Part shown: in pieces, positions 17,962 through 35,718 of the stretch
Layout: the number at the start of each line of letters is the position of its first letter
Position numbering within the stretch: position 1 is the stretch's first letter
Assembly (NCBI RefSeq): GCF_003633755.1
Contig: NZ_RBIL01000001.1
Span: 1,535,426 to 1,599,425, forward strand
DNA: 64,000 nucleotides
Reading direction: 5' to 3'
Source: Solirubrobacter pauli
Lineage (GTDB): Bacteria > Actinomycetota > Thermoleophilia > Solirubrobacterales > Solirubrobacteraceae
The notes under the pieces: model-generated
What the model was told of the DNA's origin: nothing
Seen by the model: the letters and a program-made list of their open reading frames with translations, nothing else
The model's database searches: none
Program-made: the position numbers and the translations under genes

Positions 17962-19625
17962 AGGCGTTGCCGACCGCGACCCCGCGCGAGTCCTGGGCCG
18001 TCGTCCGCGAACTCCTGCGCCCGCGTCGCCGCCAGGCCGCGATCGCCCTCGGGGTGCTCGTCGCGGCGGCCGCGCTCGGCCTCGCCGGTCCGCTGCTCCT
18101 GGGCGAGATCGTCGACCGCGTCGACGAGCAGCGCTCGATCACCGGGCCCGCGCTGGCGCTCGTGGGGGTCGCGATCGGCGAGGCGCTGCTGTTCGCCGTC
18201 GGCCTGATCCTGATCTCGAACCTCGGCCAGCCGGTCCTCGCGGCCCTGCGCGAGCGCGTCGTCGCGCGCGCCCTCAAGCTCCCCGCCGAGCAGGTCGAGC
18301 GCGGCGGGCGCGGCGACCTGCTCTCGCGCCTGGGTGACGACATCGCGGTCCTCAGCGAAGCCGTCGTCGAAGCCGTCCCGCCGCTGGCCGCGGCGAGCCT
18401 GACGCTCGGGCTGACGTTCGTCGGCCTCGCCACGATCGATCCGCGGCTCACGCTCGCGGCGCTGCTCGTCGTGCCCGTGCAGGTCTGGGCGGTCCGCTGG
18501 TACGCGAAGCGAGCGGGCCCCGCCTACGCCGACGAGCGCCGGGTCAGCGGCGAGCGCGCGCAGGCGATCCTCGACGTCGTCGGTGGCGCCCGGACGATCC
18601 GCGCGCTCGGCCTGCAGCCGACGGCGCTGCCGCGCGTCGAGGCGCGCTCGCTGTCCAGCGTCGCCGCGGTCGTCCGGACGATCCGCATCTCCACGCACTT
18701 CAGCTCGCGCCTGAACGCGGCCGAGTTCGTCGGCACCGCCTCGACGCTCGTCGCCGGCTACTTCCTCGTCAAAGCCGACAGCATCTCGGTCGGCGCGGCC
18801 ACCGCCGCCGCGCTGCTGTTCATCCGCACGTTCGACCAGTTCAACATCGTGCTGGGCACGATCGACGAGGCGAACCGCGCGCTCGCCGCGCTCGCCCGGC
18901 TCGTCGGCGTCCTCCAGGTGCCGGAGCCGCCGCCAGCCGAGCCGCATCCCGGCGCGCACGTCGCCCTCGACGGGATCCGGCACGCGTACGACGGCGGGCC
19001 GACCGTCCTGCACGACGTCGACCTGCACATCGCCGCGGGCGAGCGGGTGGCGGTCGTGGGCGTGTCGGGCTCGGGCAAGACGACGCTGGCGAAGGTCGTC
19101 GCGCGCTTCCACACGCCCACGGACGGCACGGTCGACGTCGGCCAGGTCGCGCTCGTCACGCAGGAGGTGCACGTGTTCGCGGGCACGCTCGCGGACGACC
19201 TGCGGCTGGCGAAGCCGGACGCCACCGACGAGCAGTTGCAGCGCGCGCTCGACGCGGTCGACGCCGGCTGGGCCCGCCTGGACGCCGTCGTCGGCCACGG
19301 CGGCGTCGAGCTCACGCCCGCGCAGGCGCAGCAGCTCGCGCTCGCGCGCCTTCACCTCGCCGACCCGAGGATCGCCGTCCTCGACGAGGCGACGGCCGAG
19401 GCGGGCAGCGCCGGCGCGCGCGTCCTCGAACGCGCCGCCGACACGGTCCTGCGCGGCCGCACGGCGCTGGTCGTCGCGCACCGCCTCACGCAGGCGGCCC
19501 GCGCCGACCGGATCATCGTCATGGACGCGGGCCGGATCGTCGAGAGCGGCACGCACGCGGAGCTCGTGGCGGCCGAGGGCGCCTACGCCGCCCTCTGGCA
19601 CGCCTACACCGCCGACCGGGCCTAG
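17958..19625 (+). CDS. ABC exporter-type half-transporter with degenerate signature motif (partner B)
   Basis: 555 residues, ATG overlapping the previous stop by 4 bp. An exporter membrane domain (residues ~1-310) is followed by an ATPase domain with intact Walker A GVSGSGKTT (Lys ~374), Q-loop VALVTQEVHVFAGTLADD, Walker B AVLDEAT (Asp476, Glu477) and switch His in VVAHRLTQAARADR. The ABC signature is lost: VELTPAQAQQLALARL (~452) replaces LSGGQ. It complements partner A exactly, so the heterodimer would have one complete ATP site (Walker motifs of B with signature of A) and one dead site. The 3' end overlaps the convergent lipoprotein gene by 4 bp. Confidence 0.9.
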   Translation: MKALPTATPRESWAVVRELLRPRRRQAAIALGVLVAAAALGLAGPLLLGEIVDRVDEQRSITGPALALVGVAIGEALLFAVGLILISNLGQPVLAALRERVVARALKLPAEQVERGGRGDLLSRLGDDIAVLSEAVVEAVPPLAAASLTLGLTFVGLATIDPRLTLAALLVVPVQVWAVRWYAKRAGPAYADERRVSGERAQAILDVVGGARTIRALGLQPTALPRVEARSLSSVAAVVRTIRISTHFSSRLNAAEFVGTASTLVAGYFLVKADSISVGAATAAALLFIRTFDQFNIVLGTIDEANRALAALARLVGVLQVPEPPPAEPHPGAHVALDGIRHAYDGGPTVLHDVDLHIAAGERVAVVGVSGSGKTTLAKVVARFHTPTDGTVDVGQVALVTQEVHVFAGTLADDLRLAKPDATDEQLQRALDAVDAGWARLDAVVGHGGVELTPAQAQQLALARLHLADPRIAVLDEATAEAGSAGARVLERAADTVLRGRTALVVAHRLTQAARADRIIVMDAGRIVESGTHAELVAAEGAYAALWHAYTADRA

Positions 19626-23542: not shown

Positions 23543-24940
23543 TCAGCGCTTGAGCGTCACGGTCAGGCTCGCGCCCGCGCCGGTGATGCTCAGCTTCACG
23601 GTCTTCTTGCCCTTCAGCTTGGCCTTGCCGGCCTTCGTGAAGCGCAGCGTCGCCTGGCCCTCGCCCCGCTTGACGGTCACGCTGCCCTTGGCCACGGTCG
23701 TCTTGCCGTACTTGGCGGCCACGGCCTGCTTGCCGTTGGTCGCGCCCTTGAGCTTGATCACGAGGCCCCGCTTGAGCGCCGCCGCGAGCTTGACCTTCGT
23801 CACGCTCAGCGTGGTGCCGGAGCCGCCGCCGGGCTGGCCGGGCGTCGGGGTCGTCCCGCCGCCGCCACCGGGGCCGCCCTTGCCGGGACCACCCGGGTTG
23901 CCGGGGGCGGGCGGAGCGGGCCGCGCGGCCGGCACGTCGGCCGGGCCCCACGACGGGTAGCTCGCGCCGGCGACCAGCAGCTTGCCGCCGTCGGTCAGCG
24001 GCGTGCACTCACCCTTGACGGTGTAGTGCGGCAGCGCGGCGGTGTGGATGCCGTCGCCGGAGTCGGCCCAGAAGATCCGCGTGCCGTCGGCGTTGAACGT
24101 CGGGCTCGCGATCTTGCCGTCGGTGAAGTCGGTCGTCGCCTGGGCGCAGCGCTCCGGGTAGGCGGGGTGGTAGCCACCGACCAGGTTGGAGATGCTCATG
24201 CTCTTGCCGTCGTCCGTGACGGTGGCGAGCACGGACTTGTCGCGCGACATGATCGAGTCCTTGACCTTGCCGTGGAAGTGGTAGTCCTCGAACCAGCGCT
24301 TGAGGCCCTGGCTGTCGTCCGGCGAGTCCGGCGTCCACAGCACCGTGTCCTCGTTGGGCATGATGTACGGGTCGCTGAGGAGCACCGTGCTGTTGTCGAC
24401 CCACGAGGCGTCGATCCAGCCCGAGCGGCGACGGAAGCCCGGCTCGTCCCACGCGGTCAGGCGGTTCGGGTCCGTGAACGCCGTGCCGTGGTAGAGGCGC
24501 TTGAGGTAGCAGCCGTTGGACGGGTTGCAGTACGGGTCCTGGCCGACGTACTGCCAGTAGTACGTGTACGCCACGCGTCGGCCGTCGGGGGAGATCGCCG
24601 GGTCGAACGGGCCCTTGAACTGCAGCGTCGGGTCCGTCGAGGTGGAGACCGGCGTGGCGATGTCCGCGATCACCGAGCCGTCGCGCTCCAGGTGGCGGAT
24701 GCGATCACCGCGCAGCGCGACCATGCGGCCGCTGTCGGCCTGGGAGACGGTCGAGTAGCCGCCGTCGAACGTCACCTGGTACTCGCGAGCACCGTCCGTG
24801 GTGGCGAGGAACACGTTGCCCGCCTTGATGTAGGCGATCGAGTCGGCCTGCGCCGCGGCGGGCGCGCCGAGCGCGAGCAGCGCCAGAGCGGCGGCGGCGC
24901 CGGCGATCCGTCGCCGGCTGAAGAGGGGTGCGTCGTGCAT
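23543..24940 (-). CDS. Secreted beta-propeller (TolB/PD40-like) protein
   Basis: 465 residues from ATG 24940. The N-terminus LFSRRRIAGAAAALALLALG followed by APAAAQA is a signal peptide with a twin-arginine-like SRR motif, so Tat export is possible. The mature part has repeated blades of the WD40-like PD40/TolB type (AYIKAGNVFLATTDGAREYQ, FDPAISPDGRRVAYTYYWQY, SPTFNADGTRIFWADSGDG). A Pro/Gly-rich linker (~residues 330-375) joins a Lys-rich C-terminal domain with regular beta strands ending in TVTLKR. The upstream ATG (25033) lies in the intergenic region. Function unknown. Confidence 0.82.
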   Translation of the reverse strand: MHDAPLFSRRRIAGAAAALALLALGAPAAAQADSIAYIKAGNVFLATTDGAREYQVTFDGGYSTVSQADSGRMVALRGDRIRHLERDGSVIADIATPVSTSTDPTLQFKGPFDPAISPDGRRVAYTYYWQYVGQDPYCNPSNGCYLKRLYHGTAFTDPNRLTAWDEPGFRRRSGWIDASWVDNSTVLLSDPYIMPNEDTVLWTPDSPDDSQGLKRWFEDYHFHGKVKDSIMSRDKSVLATVTDDGKSMSISNLVGGYHPAYPERCAQATTDFTDGKIASPTFNADGTRIFWADSGDGIHTAALPHYTVKGECTPLTDGGKLLVAGASYPSWGPADVPAARPAPPAPGNPGGPGKGGPGGGGGTTPTPGQPGGGSGTTLSVTKVKLAAALKRGLVIKLKGATNGKQAVAAKYGKTTVAKGSVTVKRGEGQATLRFTKAGKAKLKGKKTVKLSITGAGASLTVTLKR

Positions 24941-25014
24941 GGACCGCACTCTCGCGCCGCACCGCCGCACCGGCATCAGGGCTCGACCCAAATGTTGGTC
25001 GACCCGTACTGGTT

Positions 25015-25036
25015 GGGGTGCGGAGATCCGCACCCC
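25015..25036 (-). terminator. Hairpin terminator after the Wadjet-like operon
   Basis: GGGGTGCGG-AGAT-CCGCACCCC, a perfect 9-bp stem with a 4-nt loop, 11 bp beyond the stop of the SMC gene. It marks the end of the operon and shows that nothing further is cotranscribed. Confidence 0.65.
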
Positions 25037-25047
25037 GATCCTCGTGC

Positions 25048-28000
25048 CTACTCGTCCGCGACGAGCTGGCTGCCGGTCCAGACCGACCGCTGACCGACCA
25101 CCACGCGCTGCGAGCGGAACCGGCGCAGGTTGATCAGCGCGAACCGGTGCGTGGGCACGAACGGCCGCAGCTTGTAGGAGGCCATCATGAAGTCCAGGTC
25201 GAGCTCGCCGAGCACCTCGAGCATCTGCCGCGCGTGCGCGTCGTCGATGCCCTCGAACGCCTCGTCGAGCACGAGCGCCCGCGGGGACGGCAGCGCCGCG
25301 CCGTCGAAGAAGCCCGCGAGCGCGGCGAACAGCGGCAGCTGGAGCATGATCGCCCGCTCGCCGCCGGAGCCGGCGACGAGCAGCCGGTTGGTGAGCTTGC
25401 GCGTCGGCCCGCCGTCGCGCGTGACCTGCACCCAGAACCGGTGCCAGGCGCGGTAGTCGAGCGCCCGCGCGATCTGCTCGGCGGTCGTGCCCTCACCGCG
25501 GTCGCGCTCGGCGTCGATCAGCGCCTGCAGCTGGTCGCCGAGCTGCGCCTGCGCGTCGGCGTCGAGCATGCCCGGCCCGCGCTTGAGCAGCGCGACGGTG
25601 TCGCGCAGCGCGTCCGCCGCCTCCGCCTCGATCTCCCACTGCAGGCCGACGCGGATGCCGAAGTGCGTCCGGCAGCGGGCGAGCACCCGGTTCGTGCGCT
25701 CGACCTGCTCGCGGACCTCGGCCAGCCGCACGGCGAGCGCGTCGGCGAGGCCGTCGACGATCCACTTGCGCATCAGCTGCTGCTCCTGCTCGGAGATGCT
25801 CGCCTTCAGCGATTCGAGCTCGGTGGCGAGCTGCTCGGCGAGGTCGCGCACGCGCTGGTGCTCGCCGGAGCGGGCGACCGTCACGACGATCAGATCGCGG
25901 TCGTCGCCCGGGTACTCCTGCGCGACGACGTACCCGCGCGAGGGTGAGAGCGCCTCCCGCAGCGCGGTGATCTGCGCGCTCACGCGCGTGCTGAGCTGCG
26001 TCAGGCTGTCGGTCGGCGCGCCGCGGGCGACCAGCGCGCGGGCCGCGTCGAGCGGCTCGCCCGGCAGCTCCAGCAGCCCGTGGGCGCCGAGCACGGCCAG
26101 CGCCGCGCGCGCGGCGTCGCGACCGGCGACCGCCGCCTTCACCCGGCCGCCGACGACCTCGACCTGCGCGTCCAGCACCGCGGCCCGCTTGGTCAGCTCC
26201 GCGCCCTGGTCGGCGAGCGCCTTGAGCGCGGCCTTGACCTCGGCCAGCGCCGGCTCGGTGCGGTCGAGCTCGTCCTGGACGCTGAGCAGCTCCGGGCCTT
26301 CGAGCTGCTTGACCATCTCCAGCTCGCCGGCGCGGCGCTCGCGCTCCTCGTCCGCGAGCTCGAGCTCCGCTTCGGCCGCGACGAGCCCCTGCTCCTTGCC
26401 GCCAAGCTTCGCCGCGACCGCCTCGTGCTGGCGCCGGTCACGCGTGAGCCGCTCGGCCGGCCCGCCCAGCTCCCGCAGCTGCGTGCGCAGCTCGGCGAGG
26501 CCCTCGGCCAGCGTCTGGCGCCCCGCGCGGTCGGGAAGCTCGTGCTCGCGCTGGAAGCTGCTGGCGACCAAGCGGGCGTCGCGGGCCGCGGCGCGCGCGC
26601 CGACGACATCCTCCTCGGCGACGCGCACGGCGTCCCGCGCGACCTCGGCCGCCGCCTCCGCCGTGTGCTGGCGACTGCGCGCCGCGGCGTACCCACGGTC
26701 CTTGCCGAGCAGCGCCTGCGCCTCGGCGGTCGCCCGACCCGCCTTCGCCTCCAGCGCGCGCAGCGCCTGCCGGATGCGCTCGGCCTCGGCCTGGAGCGCC
26801 ACGACGTCGCCGTCCAGTTGCTCCTGGCGCGCGAGCCGGCCCCGCTCGCGCGCGGTCGCCCCGACCCACGCGGCAGGCCGGACGTCGCGCTGCGCGCGCA
26901 GCGGGCCGACCGCGCACGAGCCGTCGAGCCCGAGCACCACCGGGCCGCGCTTGGCCGCGGCCGCGCCGGCGTCCTTGGGCGCGATCGCCACGCTCGCGAG
27001 GGCGGCGCGCAGCGCGTCGATGTCCACCGTCGGCGTGTCCGTGCGTTCGAGCGCGGCGCCGAGGGCGTCCGGGTCGATCGCGAGCACGTCGGCGAGGCTC
27101 TTGCCCGAGACCGGCTCGGCCGCCACGAGCAGCAGCTGCCCGTCCGCCGTGCGCACGCCGTCGGCCGCGGGGACGGCCGTGAGCAGGCCGCTCGCGTCCA
27201 GCGCCGCCTCGAGCCCGTCGCGCTGCGCGGCGGTCAGGCCGTCCTTGAAGTCGACCAGCTCCCACAGCGCGGGACCGTCGGCGTCGTCGCGCCACGCCGC
27301 CAGGTCGGGGCGCCCGTTGACGCCGCGCGCCAGCCGGGCGAGCTCCTCGCGGGCCGCGCCCAGCTCGCCGTCGATGCGCGCGAGGGCGTGCTCGGCGGCC
27401 GCGCGGTCGGCGCCGACGCGTTCGCGGTGCGCGTCGTGGGCGACCGCGATCGGCGCGAGGTCGAGCAGCGCGCTCTCCCCGTCGAGGCCCGCGAGGATGT
27501 CCTCGACGACGTCCGCGGTCAGCGACAGCTCCGCCAGGTCCCCCGCCCACCAGCGCACCTGGTCCTCGACCTCCTCACGGGCCGCGGTCGCCGACTCGGC
27601 GGCGGTGAGCGCGTCCGCCTGCTTGCCCTCCAGCGCGCCGACGAGCCGCTCGGCGTGCCGCTCCGCCCGCTCGAGCACGTCGACGACGCGGTCCAGCTCG
27701 GCGTCGAGCTGCGCGGCGCGGGAGAGCAGCTGCTCACGGTGCCGGCGCTCGCGCTCGATCGTCTCCACGTGCGCGGTGAGCGCGTCCAGCGCAGCCGGCC
27801 AGGGCCGCGGCGGCACGCCGCACTCGCCCGCGCGGGTGTCGATCCCCGCCTGCGCCGCGCGCAGCTGCGCCTCGGCGCCGTCGGCGTCCGCGCTCAGCCG
27901 CTGCAGCTCGGCGCGCCGCTCGTCGAGGTCCTCGCGCAGCTCCAGCACGCGGCGGTTGAGCGCGCTGTAGGTCTTCTCGGCCGCCTGCGCGGCCGCGGTC

Positions 28001-29040
28001 GCCTCGTTGAGCCGCTGCGCGCCGGGGCTGTTGAGCTTGCGCAGCAGCGCCTCGCGCTGGCCTTCCAACCGCTCACGGCGCGCGTCGGCGTCGACGAGCT
28101 GCTCGGTGTGGCGGACCTGGTCGCGCTCGAGCTGCTCGCGGTCCGCGCGCAGGCCCGCCGCGGCCTGCTCGGCCGACTCGCGGATCCGCTCGGTGTCCAG
28201 CAGCCGCGTCGCGCGCTCGTGGCCGAGCCGCAGCACGTACCGCTCGTAGACCTCGCCGAACGCGACCGCCGCGTCCCGGTCGGCCTGCAGGCCGTCGATC
28301 CGCTCGCGCATCCGCTCGAGCATGTCCAGCCGGTCGGCGCCCTCCTTGACGAGGGTGAGGTCCAGCTCCGGCAGCGAGTTCGTGAGCTGCTCGTCGAACA
28401 CCTCGGGCGTGAGCACCTCGGCGAGCTTCGGCCGGCGCAGCAGGAACAGCAGGTTGACCATCGACTGGTACGCGTCCATCGACGCGAACCCGAACAGCGC
28501 GTCGTTGACGGCGCGGCGGTAGTCCATCGCGGCCGTGAACGTGCGCCCGCTCGGCCCGAGCGCGCCCCCGAGCGCCCGGCGGCTGAGCGGCTGGCCGTCC
28601 GGCGCCAGGTCGACCTCGCCGACGCCGCGCGCGGGGTCGAGGATGCGCGCGCCGCGCAGCAGGAAGAACCACGTGCTGTCGGTCGTCTGGCTGCCGCCCG
28701 ACTGGCCGCCCGACGCGCCCATACCGACCGTGACGTACTCCGTCTCGCCGTCCTCGCCGACCGGCATCAGCGTCTCCAGCCAGACGTACCCGACACGGCG
28801 CGTGTAGACGTCGCCGAGCGACAGGTTCCAGGCGAACGGGCGGCCCTGCTTGCCGGAGGTGTCGACGCGGTACTCGGCGATGTTCCCCTCCAGCAGGAGC
28901 GGGAACGTGAGCTCCAGCGCGCGTGACTTGCCGACGCCGTTGGCGCCCTTGATCACGAGCTTGCCGTCCTCGAAGACGAAGACCTCGTTGGCGTACTCGT
29001 AGAGGTTGATCACGCCCATGCGCGTGAAGCGACCGCGCAT
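25048..29040 (-). CDS. JetC-like SMC ATPase (TIGR02680 family) of a Wadjet-type system
   Basis: 1330 residues from ATG 29040 (a GTG at 29043 is equally possible; both overlap the previous stop). It has a MukB/SMC-like layout: N-terminal Walker A GANGVGKSRALEL (Lys ~38) after INLYEYANEVFVFEDGKLVI, very long Ala/Glu/Arg/Leu coiled coils, a central hinge region around residues 550-700, and C-terminal signature AGSGGERAIMLQLP (~1225) with Walker B ALVLDEAFEGIDD (~1255). The family belongs to a known four-gene neighbourhood (TIGR02677-02680) that includes Wadjet anti-plasmid systems, in which the SMC extrudes DNA loops. Here only three of the four genes are adjacent. Confidence 0.9.
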   Translation of the reverse strand: MRGRFTRMGVINLYEYANEVFVFEDGKLVIKGANGVGKSRALELTFPLLLEGNIAEYRVDTSGKQGRPFAWNLSLGDVYTRRVGYVWLETLMPVGEDGETEYVTVGMGASGGQSGGSQTTDSTWFFLLRGARILDPARGVGEVDLAPDGQPLSRRALGGALGPSGRTFTAAMDYRRAVNDALFGFASMDAYQSMVNLLFLLRRPKLAEVLTPEVFDEQLTNSLPELDLTLVKEGADRLDMLERMRERIDGLQADRDAAVAFGEVYERYVLRLGHERATRLLDTERIRESAEQAAAGLRADREQLERDQVRHTEQLVDADARRERLEGQREALLRKLNSPGAQRLNEATAAAQAAEKTYSALNRRVLELREDLDERRAELQRLSADADGAEAQLRAAQAGIDTRAGECGVPPRPWPAALDALTAHVETIERERRHREQLLSRAAQLDAELDRVVDVLERAERHAERLVGALEGKQADALTAAESATAAREEVEDQVRWWAGDLAELSLTADVVEDILAGLDGESALLDLAPIAVAHDAHRERVGADRAAAEHALARIDGELGAAREELARLARGVNGRPDLAAWRDDADGPALWELVDFKDGLTAAQRDGLEAALDASGLLTAVPAADGVRTADGQLLLVAAEPVSGKSLADVLAIDPDALGAALERTDTPTVDIDALRAALASVAIAPKDAGAAAAKRGPVVLGLDGSCAVGPLRAQRDVRPAAWVGATARERGRLARQEQLDGDVVALQAEAERIRQALRALEAKAGRATAEAQALLGKDRGYAAARSRQHTAEAAAEVARDAVRVAEEDVVGARAAARDARLVASSFQREHELPDRAGRQTLAEGLAELRTQLRELGGPAERLTRDRRQHEAVAAKLGGKEQGLVAAEAELELADEERERRAGELEMVKQLEGPELLSVQDELDRTEPALAEVKAALKALADQGAELTKRAAVLDAQVEVVGGRVKAAVAGRDAARAALAVLGAHGLLELPGEPLDAARALVARGAPTDSLTQLSTRVSAQITALREALSPSRGYVVAQEYPGDDRDLIVVTVARSGEHQRVRDLAEQLATELESLKASISEQEQQLMRKWIVDGLADALAVRLAEVREQVERTNRVLARCRTHFGIRVGLQWEIEAEAADALRDTVALLKRGPGMLDADAQAQLGDQLQALIDAERDRGEGTTAEQIARALDYRAWHRFWVQVTRDGGPTRKLTNRLLVAGSGGERAIMLQLPLFAALAGFFDGAALPSPRALVLDEAFEGIDDAHARQMLEVLGELDLDFMMASYKLRPFVPTHRFALINLRRFRSQRVVVGQRSVWTGSQLVADE

Positions 29041-30233
29041 CACAGCAGCGACTCCTGGGGATCGGTGGGTTCTTCGGTGGTGCCGACCGCCTCGCGGAAG
29101 CGGCCGAACGCGGGCCGCAGCTGCAGCGTCGTGCCGTCGGTGGCCAGCAGGTCCAGCGCCTCGAGCTGCTCGACCGCCTCGCGCGCCATCACGTCCTCGG
29201 GCTTGGCGAAGTACTTGGGGTGCGCGGTCAGCAGGTCACGCGCCGCCCGGCGGACGTCCTCGGCCGTGAAGCCCGTGCGGCCGTGCTCGGCGGCCAGGCC
29301 GGCGCCGATCAGCAGCGCCGCCTGGCGGTCGCGCTGGAAGGTCGGGAAGCGCAGGTCCGTGGCCTCCGACGCGGTCGGGTCGATCAGGCACGTGCCCTCC
29401 TGGCGGTGCTCGGCGACCAGGCCGGTGAGCGCGCATACGCGGTCGGCGATCGCCCGCCGCTGATGGCGGAAGTGCAGCTGCTCCTCCATCGAAAGGTCCT
29501 TGAAGTAGACGGCCGGATGCTCGGCCAGGCGGCGCGCGGTGTGCAGTCGCAGGCGGGTGCGGCGGGCGTCCTCGGAGGGCGGCGTCGGCTCGGCGAGCGC
29601 GCGGCGGCGGATCTCCTCGCGGTCGGCGTCGGCGATCAGGAAGCTCGGCGCCAGCCGCTCGAGCCGGACGCGGTCGATGTTGTAGAGCGCCTCGACCGCG
29701 CGCGGGTCGGCGGTGGCGAACGCCTCACGGTCGCCGTCGACGACCTGCAGCACGCCGTGGTCCTCGAGCCAGCGGAGCACGTCGCAGAGCACGCGCCGGT
29801 GCGCGGCCTGCGTGTAGTCGAGCGCCTCGCCCTGGTCCATGACCGCGCGGCGGACGTCCTCGGCGAGCGTCGAGATCAGCGCCTGCGGGCGGGTGGCGTC
29901 GCGCTCGAGCTCGGCCAGCAGGCAGAACAGCACGAGGTAGTGCCGGTAGCGGAACGCGGGCCACCAGTCGCGGGTCGGGCCGCCCTTCGCCTCCGGACGC
30001 ACGCGCGGGACACGGCCCTGCGGGTCGGCCTGGAGCGGGCGCTTGCGCAGGCGCGCCATGTCGCGCTCGACGTCCAGCCGGTAGCCCAGCACCTCGAACA
30101 CCTCCGCGATGAGCGCCTCGCGCTCGCGCCAGACGACCTCCATCAGCTCGGGCTCGTCGCGCCGCTCGATCCAGCCATCGCGCAGCAGCAGCCGCACGGC
30201 GCGCTGCCGCGTCGCCAACGTGTCGTCGTTCAC
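29040..30233 (-). CDS. JetB-like protein (TIGR02678 family)
   Basis: 397 residues from GTG 30233, overlapping the JetA-like stop by 4 bp; its own stop overlaps the SMC start. The N-terminus VNDDTLATRQRAVRLLLRDG and the helical middle with KGGPTRDWWPAFRYRHYLVL are typical of TIGR02678 proteins, the MukE/kite-like winged-helix subunit of these complexes. It should bridge the kleisin-like JetA and the SMC arms. Paralogous features such as DLSMEEQLHFRHQRRAIADR are visible. Upstream codons to 30272 overlap JetA and are unlikely to be used. Confidence 0.87.
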   Translation of the reverse strand: MNDDTLATRQRAVRLLLRDGWIERRDEPELMEVVWREREALIAEVFEVLGYRLDVERDMARLRKRPLQADPQGRVPRVRPEAKGGPTRDWWPAFRYRHYLVLFCLLAELERDATRPQALISTLAEDVRRAVMDQGEALDYTQAAHRRVLCDVLRWLEDHGVLQVVDGDREAFATADPRAVEALYNIDRVRLERLAPSFLIADADREEIRRRALAEPTPPSEDARRTRLRLHTARRLAEHPAVYFKDLSMEEQLHFRHQRRAIADRVCALTGLVAEHRQEGTCLIDPTASEATDLRFPTFQRDRQAALLIGAGLAAEHGRTGFTAEDVRRAARDLLTAHPKYFAKPEDVMAREAVEQLEALDLLATDGTTLQLRPAFGRFREAVGTTEEPTDPQESLL

Positions 30234-31795
30234 GCCGCCGCGACCTCGAGCTGCAGGTCGTCGAGCTCCCACGTGCCGGCGGCGGTGCGGATGCGCGCGC
30301 GCCCGTCCACCGGCGTGAGGGCGACGGCGAGCTCACGGCCGGTGTCCACGTGCCGCCACGGGCCACGGTCGTCCGGACCGGTCGCGCGGGTGCCGCACTC
30401 CATGATCCACTCGTCGACCGCCGCCAGCGAGTCCTCGTCGAGCAGGTGGAGCTGCGAGAGCCGCTTCCCGTCCAGCGACAGCAGCCGCTTGCGCAGCGCG
30501 TCGACGGCCTTCGCGTCCTGCTCGGCCTCCACGCGCGCAAGCTCCCGCGCCTGGGTGACGTCCGGGATCCGCGGCGTCCGGCCCTGGGTGCCGCTGCGGC
30601 TGGACGGCAGCCGCAGCGTGCGGTCCATCAGCAGGCCGGGGACGCTCCACCATGACTGGGTGGCGCCACTGTCGAGCTGGTCCTCGTCGGGGTCGGGCAC
30701 CGCGAGGTGGCGGGCGGGCGACATCGCGAACGCCAGGTGGAACAGCTCCGGGCCCGAGTCCGGGTCCTCGACGAGCAGCTGTGCCAGGCGCCGGTAGTCG
30801 CTCGAGCGGTCCAGCCGGCCCGATTGCTCGGACGCCATCCGGCTCCACGTGTCCAGCAGCCAGTCGACGGCGCCGTTGATGGTCCGGCGCAGCTGCTCCC
30901 ACGGGGTCGTCTCGCCCCGGCCGACGAGCCAGTCGTGCGCCTGGCGCCACTCCTCGCGGATGGCGGCGGCGCGCAGCTGGTCGGCCTGCTCGGGCGCCTG
31001 GCGGTACCCCGCCACCTGGCCGCCCGTGGCGACCATCGCGCCGACAAGCGCCTCCAGGTGCGCCTCGACCGCACGTGCGGCGACGGTGAAGCGCGCGTGC
31101 GACTCACGCTGCACGGGGTCGAAGTGCTGCAGGTGGTCGACGACGCGCGCCTTGTAGGCCAGGAACGGCTCGCGCTCGAGCCGCTCGCCGAGCGTCATCA
31201 CCTCGCCCAGCTCGCGCATGAACGCGGAGATGCCCTGCACGGTGTCGGCGATCTCCGCGCGCAGCGTGACGAGCAGCTGCTCGGCGCGCTGGCCGTCGAC
31301 GGGGGTCTGCTGGACGGTCTCCGCGAGCGCGTCCAGCGTGCCCGCGATCCGGCGCAGGCGCTGGTTGCCCAGCGAGGCGACGCGCCGCTCGAGCGCGAGC
31401 ACCCGCTGCGCCGCCTCCCACGAGGCTTCACCGGCCGCGGTGATGTCGTACGTGTTCCGCGCGCGCTTGAACTCCGCCGTGCTGCCGGCGCGGCCCGTGT
31501 CGGCCTGCCGGTCCACCGCCTCCCACTCGTAGAGCTGCTCGAGCAGGGCGATCAGCTCGTCCTGGGTGGGCGCCGTGTCCGGTGCGGCGTCCAGCCACAT
31601 CTGCAGCAGCTCGCGCGGCGCGAGCCGCAGCCCGAAGCGCCGCTTGTGCACGACGAACAGCTCCATGATCTGCACGTACCGCTCGGCGTGCGGCGCCGTC
31701 AGGTAGGCGAAGACCTTGAAGCGGCCGCTGCCGGCGGCGAGCTCCTCCGGCGCCGCGGGCGCGAAGTCGGGGACGTGGAAGTCGAGATCGGACAT
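30230..31795 (-). CDS. JetA-like protein (TIGR02677 family)
   Basis: 521 residues from ATG 31795, first gene of the operon. Begins with FKVFAYLTAPHAERYVQIME and FVVHKRRFGLRLAPRELLQM, characteristic of TIGR02677, the kleisin/MukF-like subunit. Long helices (residues ~140-330) and a C-terminal beta-rich segment (ARIRTAAGTWELDDLQLEVA) follow. Together with the next two genes it forms the JetABC motor of a Wadjet-like complex. A terminator-like hairpin lies between it and the upstream hydrolase gene, so the operon promoter probably lies just before 31795, but no clear boxes were found. Confidence 0.87.
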   Translation of the reverse strand: MSDLDFHVPDFAPAAPEELAAGSGRFKVFAYLTAPHAERYVQIMELFVVHKRRFGLRLAPRELLQMWLDAAPDTAPTQDELIALLEQLYEWEAVDRQADTGRAGSTAEFKRARNTYDITAAGEASWEAAQRVLALERRVASLGNQRLRRIAGTLDALAETVQQTPVDGQRAEQLLVTLRAEIADTVQGISAFMRELGEVMTLGERLEREPFLAYKARVVDHLQHFDPVQRESHARFTVAARAVEAHLEALVGAMVATGGQVAGYRQAPEQADQLRAAAIREEWRQAHDWLVGRGETTPWEQLRRTINGAVDWLLDTWSRMASEQSGRLDRSSDYRRLAQLLVEDPDSGPELFHLAFAMSPARHLAVPDPDEDQLDSGATQSWWSVPGLLMDRTLRLPSSRSGTQGRTPRIPDVTQARELARVEAEQDAKAVDALRKRLLSLDGKRLSQLHLLDEDSLAAVDEWIMECGTRATGPDDRGPWRHVDTGRELAVALTPVDGRARIRTAAGTWELDDLQLEVAAA

Positions 31796-31812
31796 GGACC
31801 CGACCCGACACT

Positions 31813-31840
31813 AGGGGCCGGATCGGCGGACCCGGCCCCT
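31813..31840 (-). terminator. Hairpin between the hydrolase gene and the Wadjet-like operon
   Basis: AGGGGCCGG and CCGGCCCCT form a 9-bp stem with a 10-nt loop, located after the hydrolase stop (31866) and before the jetA-like start (31795). It separates the two minus-strand units. Confidence 0.55.
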
Positions 31841-31865
31841 TTCGGTGCTCTTTGCGGGAAGGGCG

Positions 31866-32699
31866 TCAGCGCGCGCTGTGCGCGAGCGCCCACTCCAGGG
31901 CCTCGTCGGCCACGCGCTCCCAGCCCGGCCAGGCGGGCAGCAGGTGCGGCCCGTCGAACACCTTGACCTCGGTCACGACGTCGTCGTTGTAGTGCTTGGC
32001 GTTGGAGGCCTGGATCGACGGCGGCATCAGGTGGTCCTCGCTGCCGGAGATGAACAGCAGCGGCGCCCGCCCGCGGTTGCCGTAGTCCACCCAGGTGTCG
32101 TCCTTGCCCGGGTGCACGTTCGCCAGCGCGCTGCCCCAGAAGATCGAGCCCGAGGCGGGGACGTGGTAGCGCTCGTACAGCCGGCGCGCCTCCTCCTCCG
32201 GGAAGCCGTTGGTGAACGCGTAGTTGAACTGCTCGAACGTGAAGCCGACGGCCTTGTGGCGGTTGGACGGGTTCTTGAGCACCGGGAACGTCGCGCGCAC
32301 CTGCGAGAGCGGGATCCGCTTGACGCCCTCGGTCGGGGCGGAGTTCATGGCCACGCCGGCCGCGCCGAAGCCGTGGTCGAGCAGCACCTGCGTGAAGACG
32401 CCGCCGGCCGAGTGGCCCATGATGATCGGCGGCGACTCGAGCTCGCCGACGACGCGCTCCAGGTGCTCGATGATCTGCGGGACGGTGACCTGCTCGATCG
32501 GCGTCGGGTCGGCGTTCAGCGCCTCCACCTCGACCTCGAGGCCGGGGTAGGCGGGCACGAGGACCTGGAAGCCCTTGGCCTCGTAGTGCTCGACCCAGTG
32601 CTCCCAGCTGCGCGGGGTGACCCAGAAGCCGTGGACGAGGACGATCGTGTCGGGCGTGCTCATGCGGGCACCGTCGCCGCGGACCAGGTGAGTCGTCAT
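31866..32699 (-). CDS. Alpha/beta-hydrolase
   Basis: 277 residues from ATG 32699, or 265 from ATG 32663, which begins MSTPDTIVLVHGFWVTPRSW and fits the family better. The HGFW oxyanion region (~22 residues after the first ATG), nucleophile elbow MGHSAGGVFTQ (GxSxG) and a late Asp/His pair (FISGSEDHLMPP and FDGPHLLPAW) give a complete Ser-Asp-His triad. This is a non-haem-peroxidase/lipase-type soluble hydrolase. It is 16-52 bp downstream of the MalT-like regulator gene, so both are probably one transcript. Substrate unknown. Confidence 0.88.
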   Translation of the reverse strand: MTTHLVRGDGARMSTPDTIVLVHGFWVTPRSWEHWVEHYEAKGFQVLVPAYPGLEVEVEALNADPTPIEQVTVPQIIEHLERVVGELESPPIIMGHSAGGVFTQVLLDHGFGAAGVAMNSAPTEGVKRIPLSQVRATFPVLKNPSNRHKAVGFTFEQFNYAFTNGFPEEEARRLYERYHVPASGSIFWGSALANVHPGKDDTWVDYGNRGRAPLLFISGSEDHLMPPSIQASNAKHYNDDVVTEVKVFDGPHLLPAWPGWERVADEALEWALAHSAR

Positions 32700-32715
32700 C
32701 CCCTGGGTGGCCGAA

Positions 32716-34935
32716 TCACCTAGGGGATCTGGCGATCGCGTCGGCGCGCGAGGAGACGCCGAGCTTGCGGTAGATCGACTTCACGTGGCTGTGCAGCGTG
32801 TTGTAGGAGACGAACAGCTCGGCGGCGATCTCGCGCTCGGAGCGGCCGCTCCCGAGCAGGCGCAGGACGGTCAGCTCACGGTCGCTGAGCTCCGCGCGCG
32901 GAGCCGGCGCGCTCACCCGCGCCGCACGCCGGGCGAGCGCGAGCCGGGTGGGCAGCGCGCCGGGGTCGGGGCAGCGGCCCAGGATCGCCTCGGCCTCGTC
33001 CAGCGCGGCCACCGCGCGCCCGCGGTCGCCGGTCGAGGCGGCCACCGGCGCCAGTGCGAGCAGGCCGTCGACGAGGTCGAGCGGCTGTGCCCACAGGCGG
33101 CGGAGCATGATCCCGCGCTCGAGCTCGGGCAGCGCCTCGTGCGGCAGGCCGCGCGCGGCGAGCGCGACGCCACGCGCGGTGTGGATCTCGCCCACCTCGA
33201 CCGAGTCCAGCAGCCCGCACGTGCGCGCGAGCTCGATCGCCTCGTCGGCGAGCCGCGCCTGCTCCTCGCGCCGCCCGCGCAGGCCGGCGATCAGCGACAG
33301 GTCGGCGAGCGACGCGACCGACACGATCCACTGCTCGGCGCGCGGGCCCAGCACGACGGTCTCCCGCAGGCGCGCCTCGGCCTGGTCGAGGTCGTCGTTG
33401 CAGTAGTGCGCCCAGCCCAGCGCCCACGTGAGCACCGGGTACCAGGGTGAGCCTGGACCTTCGAGCTCGGCCGAGCGCGTGCCGTGCTCGAGCACGCCCG
33501 CCACGTCGCCCCACGCGAACGTCGCCCGCAGGATCGACAGGCTCGACCGCACCGACGCCATCCCGTCGGGCAGCGGGCCGTCGTCGAGCCCGTCGAGCGC
33601 GCGCAGCCGCGCGATCACGGCGCGCATCTCGTCCTCGCGCCCGCACAGCGCGACCACCCACGCCTTCACCGCGAGCAGGCGGCGGTCGCGGTGCAGCACG
33701 TCGTCCGGGAAGCGGGTGAGCCATTCGAGCACGGACGCCGTGCGACCGGCGTTGGCGTAGTGCACCCACGTCTCGGCGATCAGCGCACTCACCTCGTCGA
33801 ACAGGCGCGCGGCGAGCGCGTGGTGGATGGCCTCGTCGGTCGTGCCCGAGGCCCGGTGCCAGACGTGCGCGCGGCGGTGCAGCTCGTCGACCAGCTCGGG
33901 CTCGCGGCGCTGCAGCTCCGCGCGCAGGAGCTGCGCGAACAGGTGATGGAAGCGGAACCACTCGTGCCGCTCGTCGAGCGGCACGAGGAAGAGGTTCGAC
34001 CGGGCGAGCGTCGCGAGGACCTCCGACGAGCCCGAGGCGTCGAGCACCGCGTCGCAGAGCGACGCGCACACGCGCTCGAGCACCGCGGTGCGCAGCATGA
34101 AGGCCTGCTGCTCCGGCGCGTACCCCGCGAGCACCTCGGCGGCGAGGAAGTCGACGACGTGGGCGGTCGTGCCGTCGAACGCCTGCACGCGCGCGTGCTT
34201 GTCGGGCTTGTCCGCGAGCGAGAGCGCCGCCAGATAGAGCCCGGCCGGCCAGCCCTCGGTGCGGGCGACGAGCAGCGCGACGTCCTCGGGCGCGAGGTCC
34301 AGCGCCAGCCGGTCGTTGAGGAACTCCGCCGCCTCGGCCTCGGTGAACCGGAGCTCCTGCGCGCGCAGCTCCAGCAGCTGGCCGCGGGCGCGCAGCCGGG
34401 CGAGCGGGAGCGGCGGATCGCTCCGGCTCGCGATGACGATCTGCACGGTCGCCGGGACGTGCTCGATCAGCCAGGCGACGCTCGCTCGCGCCGCCTCGCT
34501 CGAGAGCCGGTGGAAGTCGTCCAGCACCAGCACGAGCTCGCCCTGCTCCAGGAGCGCGTTGACGAGCCCCGGGAGCACGACCTCGGTCAAGGGCGCCGCG
34601 GGGACGGTGGCCGCGAGCGCGGCCGCGTCGAAGGCCGGGCAGGCGCGCCCGAGCGCCTCGACGACGTGCGACCACAGCACCACGACGTCGTCGTCGCCCT
34701 CGTCGAGCGAGACCCACGCGGTCGGCCGGTCGGCCGCCGCGCGCCACGCTGCCAGCAGCGTCGTCTTGCCGAAGCCGGCGGGGCAGGCCACGAGGCTGAG
34801 CCGGCGTCCGCGCCCGGCGTGCAGCCGGCTCAGCAGGCGCTCGCGCGCGATCGCCTGCGCCGGCACCACCGGCGGGTGCAGCTTCGTCAGGAGCAGGATC
34901 GGGGTGTCGGGGCGGCCTGGCGCTTGGGCGCTCAC
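32716..34935 (-). CDS. MalT-like LuxR-family ATP-dependent regulator
   Basis: 739 residues from GTG 34935. Walker [16 protein letters not shown] (~residues 51-65) and Walker [15 protein letters not shown] identify the MalT-type STAND ATPase. The middle is a helical TPR-like repeat region, and the C-terminus is a LuxR HTH ([53 protein letters not shown]). It differs from the 923-aa regulator at 20.7 kb, which has an AAA_16 domain. Likely senses a small molecule and activates transcription; the adjacent hydrolase is the nearest candidate target. Confidence 0.9.
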
Positions 34936-34944
34936 CCCGCGATC

Positions 34945-35718
34945 CTATTGGTGAGCCGTGATCAGCCAGGTGGCCGCGACGTACCGGACCTCGTCGCCGT
35001 CGACGTACGGCTCGAACGCAGGCCGGACCGCCGCGACGACTCGCTCGCGTGTGCGCTCGTCGTGATCGTTGAGCGCGATCCCGACCGGCCCGATCCGCGT
35101 GAAGTACGTCTCCAGCGCGCTCGCCGGCAGGGTGCACTCGACGTCGAGCTCGTGCACCTCCACGCCGTGCCAGCCGGCCTCGGCGAGGATGCGCTCGACC
35201 TTCCCGCGGTCCCCGAACGCGAACTGCCCGGGCGCGTCGTGGTCGCGCTCGGGCAGGTCCGGCAGCACCGGCTTCGCCGCCCGCTCGGCGGCGAGGTGGA
35301 ACGGGTTCTCCTCCGGGCCGCGCCAGGCGATCACCCGCAGCTGGCGTCCGGCCCGGCCCAGGTTGGCGAACGCCGCGACCGGGTCGTCGAAGAACATCAC
35401 CCCGAAGCGCGAGATCACGTGGTCGAAGCGCTCATCGAACCCGTGCGTCTGCGCGTCGGCGACGACGAACTCGGCCTTGTCCGTGCGGGCCCGCGCCGCC
35501 TCGATCATCGGCGCGGACACGTCGACGCCGACCACACGGGTCGCGACCTGCGCCGCCGCTTCAGTCGTCGCGCCCGTGCCGCAGCCGACGTCCAGCACCG
35601 CGCCCTCCACGCCGTCCAGCAGCGGCGCGACGAACGGCGCCAGCGCCCGGTCGGTCACCGCCTGCAGCTCCACCCACGCGTTGCCGCCGGTCGTGTTCCA
35701 CCGCGTCTTCTGATCCAT
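34945..35718 (-). CDS. SAM-dependent class I methyltransferase
   Basis: 257 residues with the Rossmann methyltransferase core: motif I VLDVGCGTGATTEAAAQ, motif II acidic residue in VVGVDVSAPMIEAAR, motif III VVADAQTHGF and FDHVISRFGVMFFDDPVAAF. It most resembles UbiE/type 11 enzymes. Starts at ATG 35718 just beyond a palindromic operator shared with the divergent MerR gene, so probably regulated by it. Substrate unknown. Confidence 0.9.
   Translation of the reverse strand: MDQKTRWNTTGGNAWVELQAVTDRALAPFVAPLLDGVEGAVLDVGCGTGATTEAAAQVATRVVGVDVSAPMIEAARARTDKAEFVVADAQTHGFDERFDHVISRFGVMFFDDPVAAFANLGRAGRQLRVIAWRGPEENPFHLAAERAAKPVLPDLPERDHDAPGQFAFGDRGKVERILAEAGWHGVEVHELDVECTLPASALETYFTRIGPVGIALNDHDERTRERVVAAVRPAFEPYVDGDEVRYVAATWLITAHQ

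What the first reader, a model, noticed from the sequence alone, without database searches (positions are those of the whole stretch)
25048..31795. Wadjet-like JetABC operon without an adjacent JetD nuclease
The three coupled genes match the TIGR02677, TIGR02678 and TIGR02680 families. The fourth family of that neighbourhood (TIGR02679, the topoisomerase-VI/Toprim-like JetD that cuts plasmid DNA) is not upstream (alpha/beta hydrolase) or downstream (terminator, then a secreted propeller). All ATPase motifs are intact and the frames are clean, so this is not an obvious decay product. It may use a remote or different nuclease, or be an SMC condensin with a non-cutting role.
Basis: partly seen in the sequence, partly recalled or inferred. 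Interest (0 to 1): 0.72.

Follow-up and report, generated by a model that had tools for sequence, protein, structure and literature searches.

The report
Plasmid-defence SMC operon lacking its nuclease
A Solirubrobacter chromosome carries the three DNA-motor genes of a type II Wadjet plasmid-defence system but no recognisable DNA-cutting subunit anywhere in the genome, and three other species of the genus share this trait, so the motor has probably been kept for a job that does not need its usual nuclease.

Summary
Window 25048-31795 (minus strand) encodes JetA-JetB-JetC of type II Wadjet (TIGR02677, TIGR02678, TIGR02680; above cut-offs, full length). No JetD (TIGR02679) follows, and none was detected in this 7.1 Mb genome or the six other genomes held for the genus, with three JetD profiles. 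JetC2 occurs in 4 of those 7. Elsewhere JetD follows jetC directly: 43 of 54 relatives found among 84,980 species; the 11 others include all four Solirubrobacter contigs. JetABC is an orthologous cassette in the window genome, S. taibaiensis and S. phytolaccae; two JetC-less congeners show a clean empty site. S. soli has a deeply diverged JetABC at another locus, also without JetD. Motifs, frames and codon-position patterns show selection on protein sequence; one species lacks the JetA N-terminus. Nested among JetD-bearing relatives, this looks like a stable JetD loss: an SMC motor comparable to nuclease-free MksBEF. I favour an auxiliary non-cutting motor (0.6); a substitute nuclease is not excluded. 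New variant of a known kind; function untested.

The parts
30230..31795 (-). JetA2 (kleisin subunit, DUF2397/TIGR02677), 521 aa
   Evidence: TIGR02677 182.3 bits, residues 28-519 on 2-490/494; PADLOC JetA2; PDB 9qe0_E JetA E 4.1e-08
29040..30233 (-). JetB2 (KITE subunit, DUF2398/TIGR02678); likely GTG start at 30233 in a GTGA overlap with the JetA stop (longest ORF starts at 30272)
   Evidence: TIGR02678 171 bits; JetB2; PDB 9qe0_D JetB E 1.9e-06; overlap read
25048..29043 (-). JetC2 (SMC ATPase, TIGR02680), 1331 aa, Walker A, signature and Walker B intact; start GTG overlaps the JetB stop
   Evidence: TIGR02680 579.7 bits, residues 5-1326 on 3-1354/1356; SbcC_Walker_B; motifs; PDB 9qe0_A JetC E 5.1e-66
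25015..25036 (-). GC-rich hairpin (GGGGTGCGGATCTCCGCACCCC) just after the jetC stop; no T run
   Evidence: sequence read; terminator scan found none
23543..25033 (-). secreted-propeller-like gene; conserved border of the cassette, NOT specific to JetABC (also present in species without JetABC)
34945..35718 (-). class I methyltransferase-like gene; other conserved border of the cassette (in S. taibaiensis and S. phytolaccae directly next to jetA)
31866..34935 (-). alpha/beta hydrolase and MalT-like LuxR regulator between the methyltransferase and jetA in the window; not at this place in S. taibaiensis or S. phytolaccae, so not a conserved partner

Best explanation
It is a type II Wadjet JetABC core (SMC + kleisin + KITE) that has dispensed with the JetD nuclease and is maintained as an auxiliary ATP-driven SMC motor beside the canonical Smc. 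Likely mechanism: JetC dimers bridged by the JetA kleisin and JetB KITE load on DNA and extrude loops as in Wadjet, but without JetD the end point is compaction, tethering or silencing rather than cleavage. Shown here: intact genes and ATPase motifs, no detectable JetD in the genus, selection on protein sequence, ancestry among JetD-bearing systems, canonical Smc also present. Inferred: complex assembly, loop extrusion, and whether the target is the chromosome (as for MksBEF) or extrachromosomal circles (as for Smc5/6 silencing).
For: Full-length family matches and motifs. No credible JetD in 7 of 7 genus genomes with TIGR02679, JetD profile A3 or JetD_C PF09983, while TIGR02679 rings in 20 of 201 genomes of the order and 40 of 48 JetC2-bearing genomes. 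Of the 16 genomes of the order sample with JetC2 over the cut-off, 14 have TIGR02679; the two without are both Solirubrobacter. JetABC cassette orthologous in 3 species at 70-88% identity. Codon-position differences far from even (p 7e-07 to 1e-27); NG86 dN/dS 0.21-0.48 for JetABC against 0.46-0.58 for the two flanking genes. Family-wide conserved positions lost in JetA/B/C are 1/34, 2/36 and 9/108, within or at the low end of the JetD-bearing control clades. Trees place it among JetD-bearing systems. Canonical SMC over the cut-off in 6 of 7 genomes; in the seventh, S. phytolaccae, it appears split over two contigs. Neighbours are not JetABC-specific. PMC10586767 (sections 4 and 7 read) states that MksBEF of P. 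[quoted passage not shown]
Against: No functional data. S. taibaiensis JetA lacks the first ~25 residues and has no usual start codon before the 28th residue of its frame (GTG), so that copy may be damaged or use a rare start. The patchy distribution (4 of 7 species, clean empty site) suits an accessory or defence gene as well as a condensin. Conservation of JetABC family positions would also be expected if a substitute nuclease were still triggered. NG86 is crude at 74% GC, and YN00 failed for most pairs.
Confidence: 0.6

Rival explanations
1. JetABC still restricts plasmids by cutting, but recruits a non-JetD nuclease encoded elsewhere in the genome (for example a housekeeping or unrelated Toprim or PD-(D/E)XK enzyme).
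For: Family-wide conserved positions of JetA/B/C are as well kept as in JetD-bearing clades. Patchy distribution with an empty site. In S. soli the JetABC operon is followed on the same strand by ynfA and recC, so a nuclease-complex gene lies beside one copy.
Against: No gene is found only with JetABC: in the window-type locus both borders persist in species without it. No JetD-like profile match anywhere. RecBCD acts on DNA ends (general knowledge), so it could not make the first cut.
Confidence: 0.2
2. A relict: the system lost JetD and the remaining genes are drifting towards loss.
For: Missing JetA N-terminus in S. taibaiensis. JetC2 absent from three of seven species. A Moorella MAG shows how JetD decays: a 26-bit JetD remnant lies just after jetC.
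Against: Open frames over ~2250 codons in the window genome; third-position excess and dN/dS below 0.5 between species at 72-87% protein identity. No JetD remnant in any Solirubrobacter JetABC locus. S. soli keeps a deeply diverged JetABC, also without JetD.
Confidence: 0.12
3. JetD exists but has diverged beyond profile recognition, or sits in an unassembled gap.
For: G000 is 96.5% complete, and profile searches have limits.
Against: JetD is adjacent in 43 of 54 relatives, across several phyla, and detectable by one profile. Absence recurs in seven assemblies. The weak hits were read and look like RecJ (G196) or non-coding frames.
Confidence: 0.08

Closest known systems
Wadjet type II (JetABCD / EptABCD; PDB 9qe0, 9qe1)
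   Same: JetA2, JetB2 and JetC2 families, gene order A-B-C, coupling, ATPase motifs
   Different: No JetD (TIGR02679) adjacent or elsewhere in the genome
MksBEF of Pseudomonas aeruginosa (nuclease-free SMC complex)
   Same: Three-subunit SMC/kleisin/KITE complex without the Toprim nuclease, beside the canonical Smc; MksBEF is said to have arisen by loss of JetD (PMC10586767, section 4 read)
   Different: A different Jet/Mks lineage (general knowledge); the present proteins are of the type II families, so this would be a separate loss. Its role in Solirubrobacter is untested
Smc5/6 restriction of extrachromosomal DNA
   Same: SMC motor that can silence circular DNA without cutting it (PMC10586767, figure legend read)
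   Different: Eukaryotic; no sequence relation was tested

Membership tests
Wadjet type II | JetA of TIGR02677 / DUF2397 | tested here: met
   over cut-off; PF09660 E 4.4e-76
Wadjet type II | JetB of TIGR02678 / DUF2398 | tested here: met
   over cut-off; PF09661 E 3e-62
Wadjet type II | JetC of TIGR02680 with intact ABC/SMC ATPase motifs | tested here: met
   over cut-off; motifs
Wadjet type II | JetD of TIGR02679 (Toprim nuclease) in the operon | tested here: not met
   no match next to jetC nor in the genome
Wadjet type II | Restriction of small circular plasmids by cleavage | not testable with these tools
   needs a plasmid assay
MksBEF-like nuclease-free SMC complex | SMC, kleisin and KITE genes without nuclease, beside the canonical Smc | tested here: met
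MksBEF-like nuclease-free SMC complex | Role in chromosome organization | not testable with these tools
   needs Hi-C or segregation assays
MksBEF-like nuclease-free SMC complex | MksB/MksE/MksF sequence families | tested here: inconclusive
   No Mks model was run by name; PADLOC best hits are JetA2/B2/C2 and JetC1 hits are weak, 43.8 bits or less, which speaks against membership of that lineage

The most novel reading that the evidence does not exclude
One bacterial genus has turned a type II Wadjet DNA cutter into a nuclease-free SMC machine, separately from MksBEF. Two deeply diverged versions at two loci both lack JetD, so the loss is old or happened twice. This would make Solirubrobacter a natural comparison of cutting and non-cutting Wadjet, in which the motor alone may silence, cluster or exclude circular DNA, or organize the chromosome.
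Probability: 0.45. Interest if true: 0.7.

Novelty: new variant of a known kind. Interest (0 to 1): 0.55.

Why it matters
How defence SMC complexes and chromosome-organizing SMC complexes turned into one another is an open question; MksBEF is thought to be a Wadjet that lost its nuclease. A JetD-free type II lineage, with JetD-bearing sister systems in the same family and JetABC-free sister species with a clean empty site, would let the effect of losing the nuclease be tested directly. It is also a practical caution: annotation that calls JetABC 'Wadjet' would predict plasmid cutting here without the cutter.

Tried and rejected
Fused nuclease: rejected, since JetA, JetB and JetC align end to end with their families and have ordinary lengths.

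Alpha/beta hydrolase, MalT-like regulator, methyltransferase or propeller as replacement effector: rejected. The first two are not at this place in S. taibaiensis or S. phytolaccae, and the last two stay when JetABC is absent. A PADLOC scan of five further window genes and five S. soli neighbours gave only generic methyltransferase, ABC-transporter-like and HTH-type matches (the reading of these as generic is mine).

Weak JetD-like hits: G000:C2 (E 0.006, stop inside) and G000:C1 (12.9 bits) lie in frames that look non-coding; the G196 hit (19 bits) reads HGDYDVDG, which I recall as a RecJ motif and did not confirm by a call.

Lost JetD-binding surface: conserved-position analysis showed no excess loss over control clades. 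Only family-wide conserved positions were tested, not a known interface; I had no structure with type II JetD.

One or two losses of JetD: JetC alone joins S. soli with the window clade (98% SH-aLRT). JetA+B+C leaves it open, and the AU test does not reject one clade (p 0.47). Long branches meet, so this stays open.

Gain or loss of the cassette in the window-type locus: not polarised; flank identities conflict.

Structure prediction, fold search and viral-contig scans were not used. JetC relatives on plasmids: 19 of 72,556 records match, none over 80% of the query; JetD on them was not checked. Papers: full-text searches in the held open-access library for JetD-less Wadjet or MksG-less Mks systems and for the TIGR names and for Solirubrobacter with Wadjet (0 papers); in the listings and the passages I read I saw no description of JetD-less type II systems. 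The type II structure paper and several main Wadjet and MksBEF papers are not held, so I cannot say it is nowhere in print.

Full report
Observation. The minus strand of window 25048-31795 carries three coupled genes. They match TIGR02677, TIGR02678 and TIGR02680 above their curated cut-offs and over nearly their full length. PADLOC's best matches are JetA2, JetB2 and JetC2, and all three match the chains of PDB entry 9qe0, named JetA, JetB and JetC. PMC12647877 (passages and one reference-list entry seen) cites a type II Wadjet structure from Neobacillus vireti; that 9qe0 is this structure is my inference. JetA and JetB share GTGA, and the JetC start overlaps the JetB stop. Walker A (GANGVGKS), signature (SGGE) and Walker B (LVLDEAFEGID) are intact. 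No extra domain is present.

JetD is missing from the genome, not only from the locus. TIGR02679 gave no match in the 7.1 Mb, 4-contig genome. The genus holds 7 genomes here: JetC2 in 4 of 7 (3 of 7 over the cut-off; the fourth is split over two contigs) and TIGR02679 in 0 of 7 at E <= 0.001 (one hit at E 0.006 was rejected). A profile of 17 diverse JetD2 proteins and the JetD_C family PF09983 gave nothing credible; the few weak hits were read and rejected. The same TIGR02679 model rings in 20 of 201 genomes of the order and in 40 of 48 genomes that carry a JetC2, so it is sensitive. In the order sample 16 genomes have JetC2 over the cut-off; 14 also have a TIGR02679 match, and the two without (G000, G194) are both of this genus.

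Named relatives. A scan of 84,980 species returned 54 loci. A local JetD profile hits directly downstream of jetC in 43 of the 54. Six lack it in the readable flank: the S. taibaiensis, S. phytolaccae (3' contig) and S. soli contigs, and three MAGs. Of the MAGs, the Moorella one keeps a 26-bit JetD remnant; a Bacillota MAG has only 1.1 kb downstream and a partial JetD on another contig; and a Chloroheliaceae MAG has 9.8 kb without JetD. The other five loci cannot be judged: the contig ends within or right after jetC, or the locus is the 5' half of S. phytolaccae.

Conserved cassette and empty site. In S. taibaiensis and S. phytolaccae the order is methyltransferase-jetA-jetB-jetC-propeller-LuxR regulator (for S. 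phytolaccae over two contigs), at 70-88% identity for the Jet proteins. The window has an alpha/beta hydrolase and a MalT-like gene between the methyltransferase and jetA. Two other genomes of the genus (G117, G179, with the same identities in this region) lack JetC2. In G117, read base by base, the methyltransferase stop lies about five bases before the sequence that in S. taibaiensis follows jetC: a clean empty site. The neighbours are therefore not dedicated partners. Whether the cassette was gained or lost there is open.

A second, distant copy. S. soli carries a JetABC only about 30% identical to the window's, with different neighbours: a YnfA-family gene and recC follow it, again without JetD. 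JetC alone groups it with the window clade (98% SH-aLRT, 57 rows), next to JetD-bearing systems of the same family. JetA+B+C (31 of 44 rows; 13 near-duplicates dropped) leaves its place among these open, and the AU test does not reject one clade (p 0.47). JetD was lost once long ago, or twice.

Selection. Between the window genome and S. taibaiensis or S. phytolaccae, third codon positions of jetA, jetB and jetC differ 1.7 to 3.8 times more often than first or second (p 7e-07 to 1e-27). NG86 dN/dS is 0.29-0.35 for JetA, 0.27-0.48 for JetB and 0.21-0.41 for JetC, against 0.46-0.58 for propeller and methyltransferase (YN00 failed for most pairs). Positions conserved in at least 85% of 36 JetD-bearing systems are changed in all three Solirubrobacter rows (window, S. 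taibaiensis, S. soli) in 1 of 34 (JetA), 2 of 36 (JetB) and 9 of 108 (JetC); seven JetD-bearing control clades, of one to four rows each, range over 1-18, 1-9 and 9-28. Against this, JetA of S. taibaiensis lacks about 25 N-terminal residues and any usual start before residue 28 of its frame.

Reading. The best-supported reading is a nuclease-free SMC motor beside canonical Smc, which is over the cut-off in 6 of 7 genomes and appears split over two contigs in the seventh. PMC10586767 (sections 4 and 7 read) says MksBEF of P. [quoted passage not shown] this would be a parallel case in type II. The patchy distribution would also fit a defence role without cutting. A substitute nuclease (0.2), a relict (0.12) and an unrecognised JetD (0.08) remain. 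By the membership test it is a type II Wadjet core but not a complete Wadjet: the JetD criterion was tested and not met.

Noticed in passing
L051:7469-17650 (S. soli, G201:C23): JetABC is followed on the same strand by a YnfA/UPF0060 gene and recC (Exonuc_V_gamma); whether the other RecBCD subunits follow, and whether the link is functional, is unknown.
   Followed up: partly
L093:7636-7752 (Moorella sp. UBA4076 MAG): Remnant of JetD (26 bits, E 9e-07) just after an open jetC frame: JetD decay caught in progress in another phylum.
   Followed up: partly
L088:1310-9029 (Candidatus Chloroheliaceae MAG): JetABC without JetD in 9.8 kb downstream; the JetC signature reads SGAE and the residues after Walker B DEAF differ from the family, so its ATPase may be altered.
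   Followed up: partly
L040:7464-8966 (S. taibaiensis): The JetA frame begins right after an in-frame stop, without the first ~25 residues and without a usual start codon before residue 28; damaged, mis-assembled or a rare start.
   Followed up: partly
window 31795-31870: A strong inverted repeat (GGGGCCGG...CCGGCCCC) and a TAGTGT element lie just before jetA; TAGTCT and TAGCCT stand at the matching place in S. taibaiensis and S. phytolaccae, a possible -10 element.
   Followed up: no
G105:C24 (L101:11088-12068): A second, partial JetC (about 235 C-terminal positions) on the opposite strand a few kb from a complete JetABCD in a Solirubrobacterales genome.
   Followed up: no
window 18183-18662: ARAGORN calls a tmRNA with an implausible tag ([17 protein letters not shown]); probably a false call in GC-rich sequence.
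   Followed up: no
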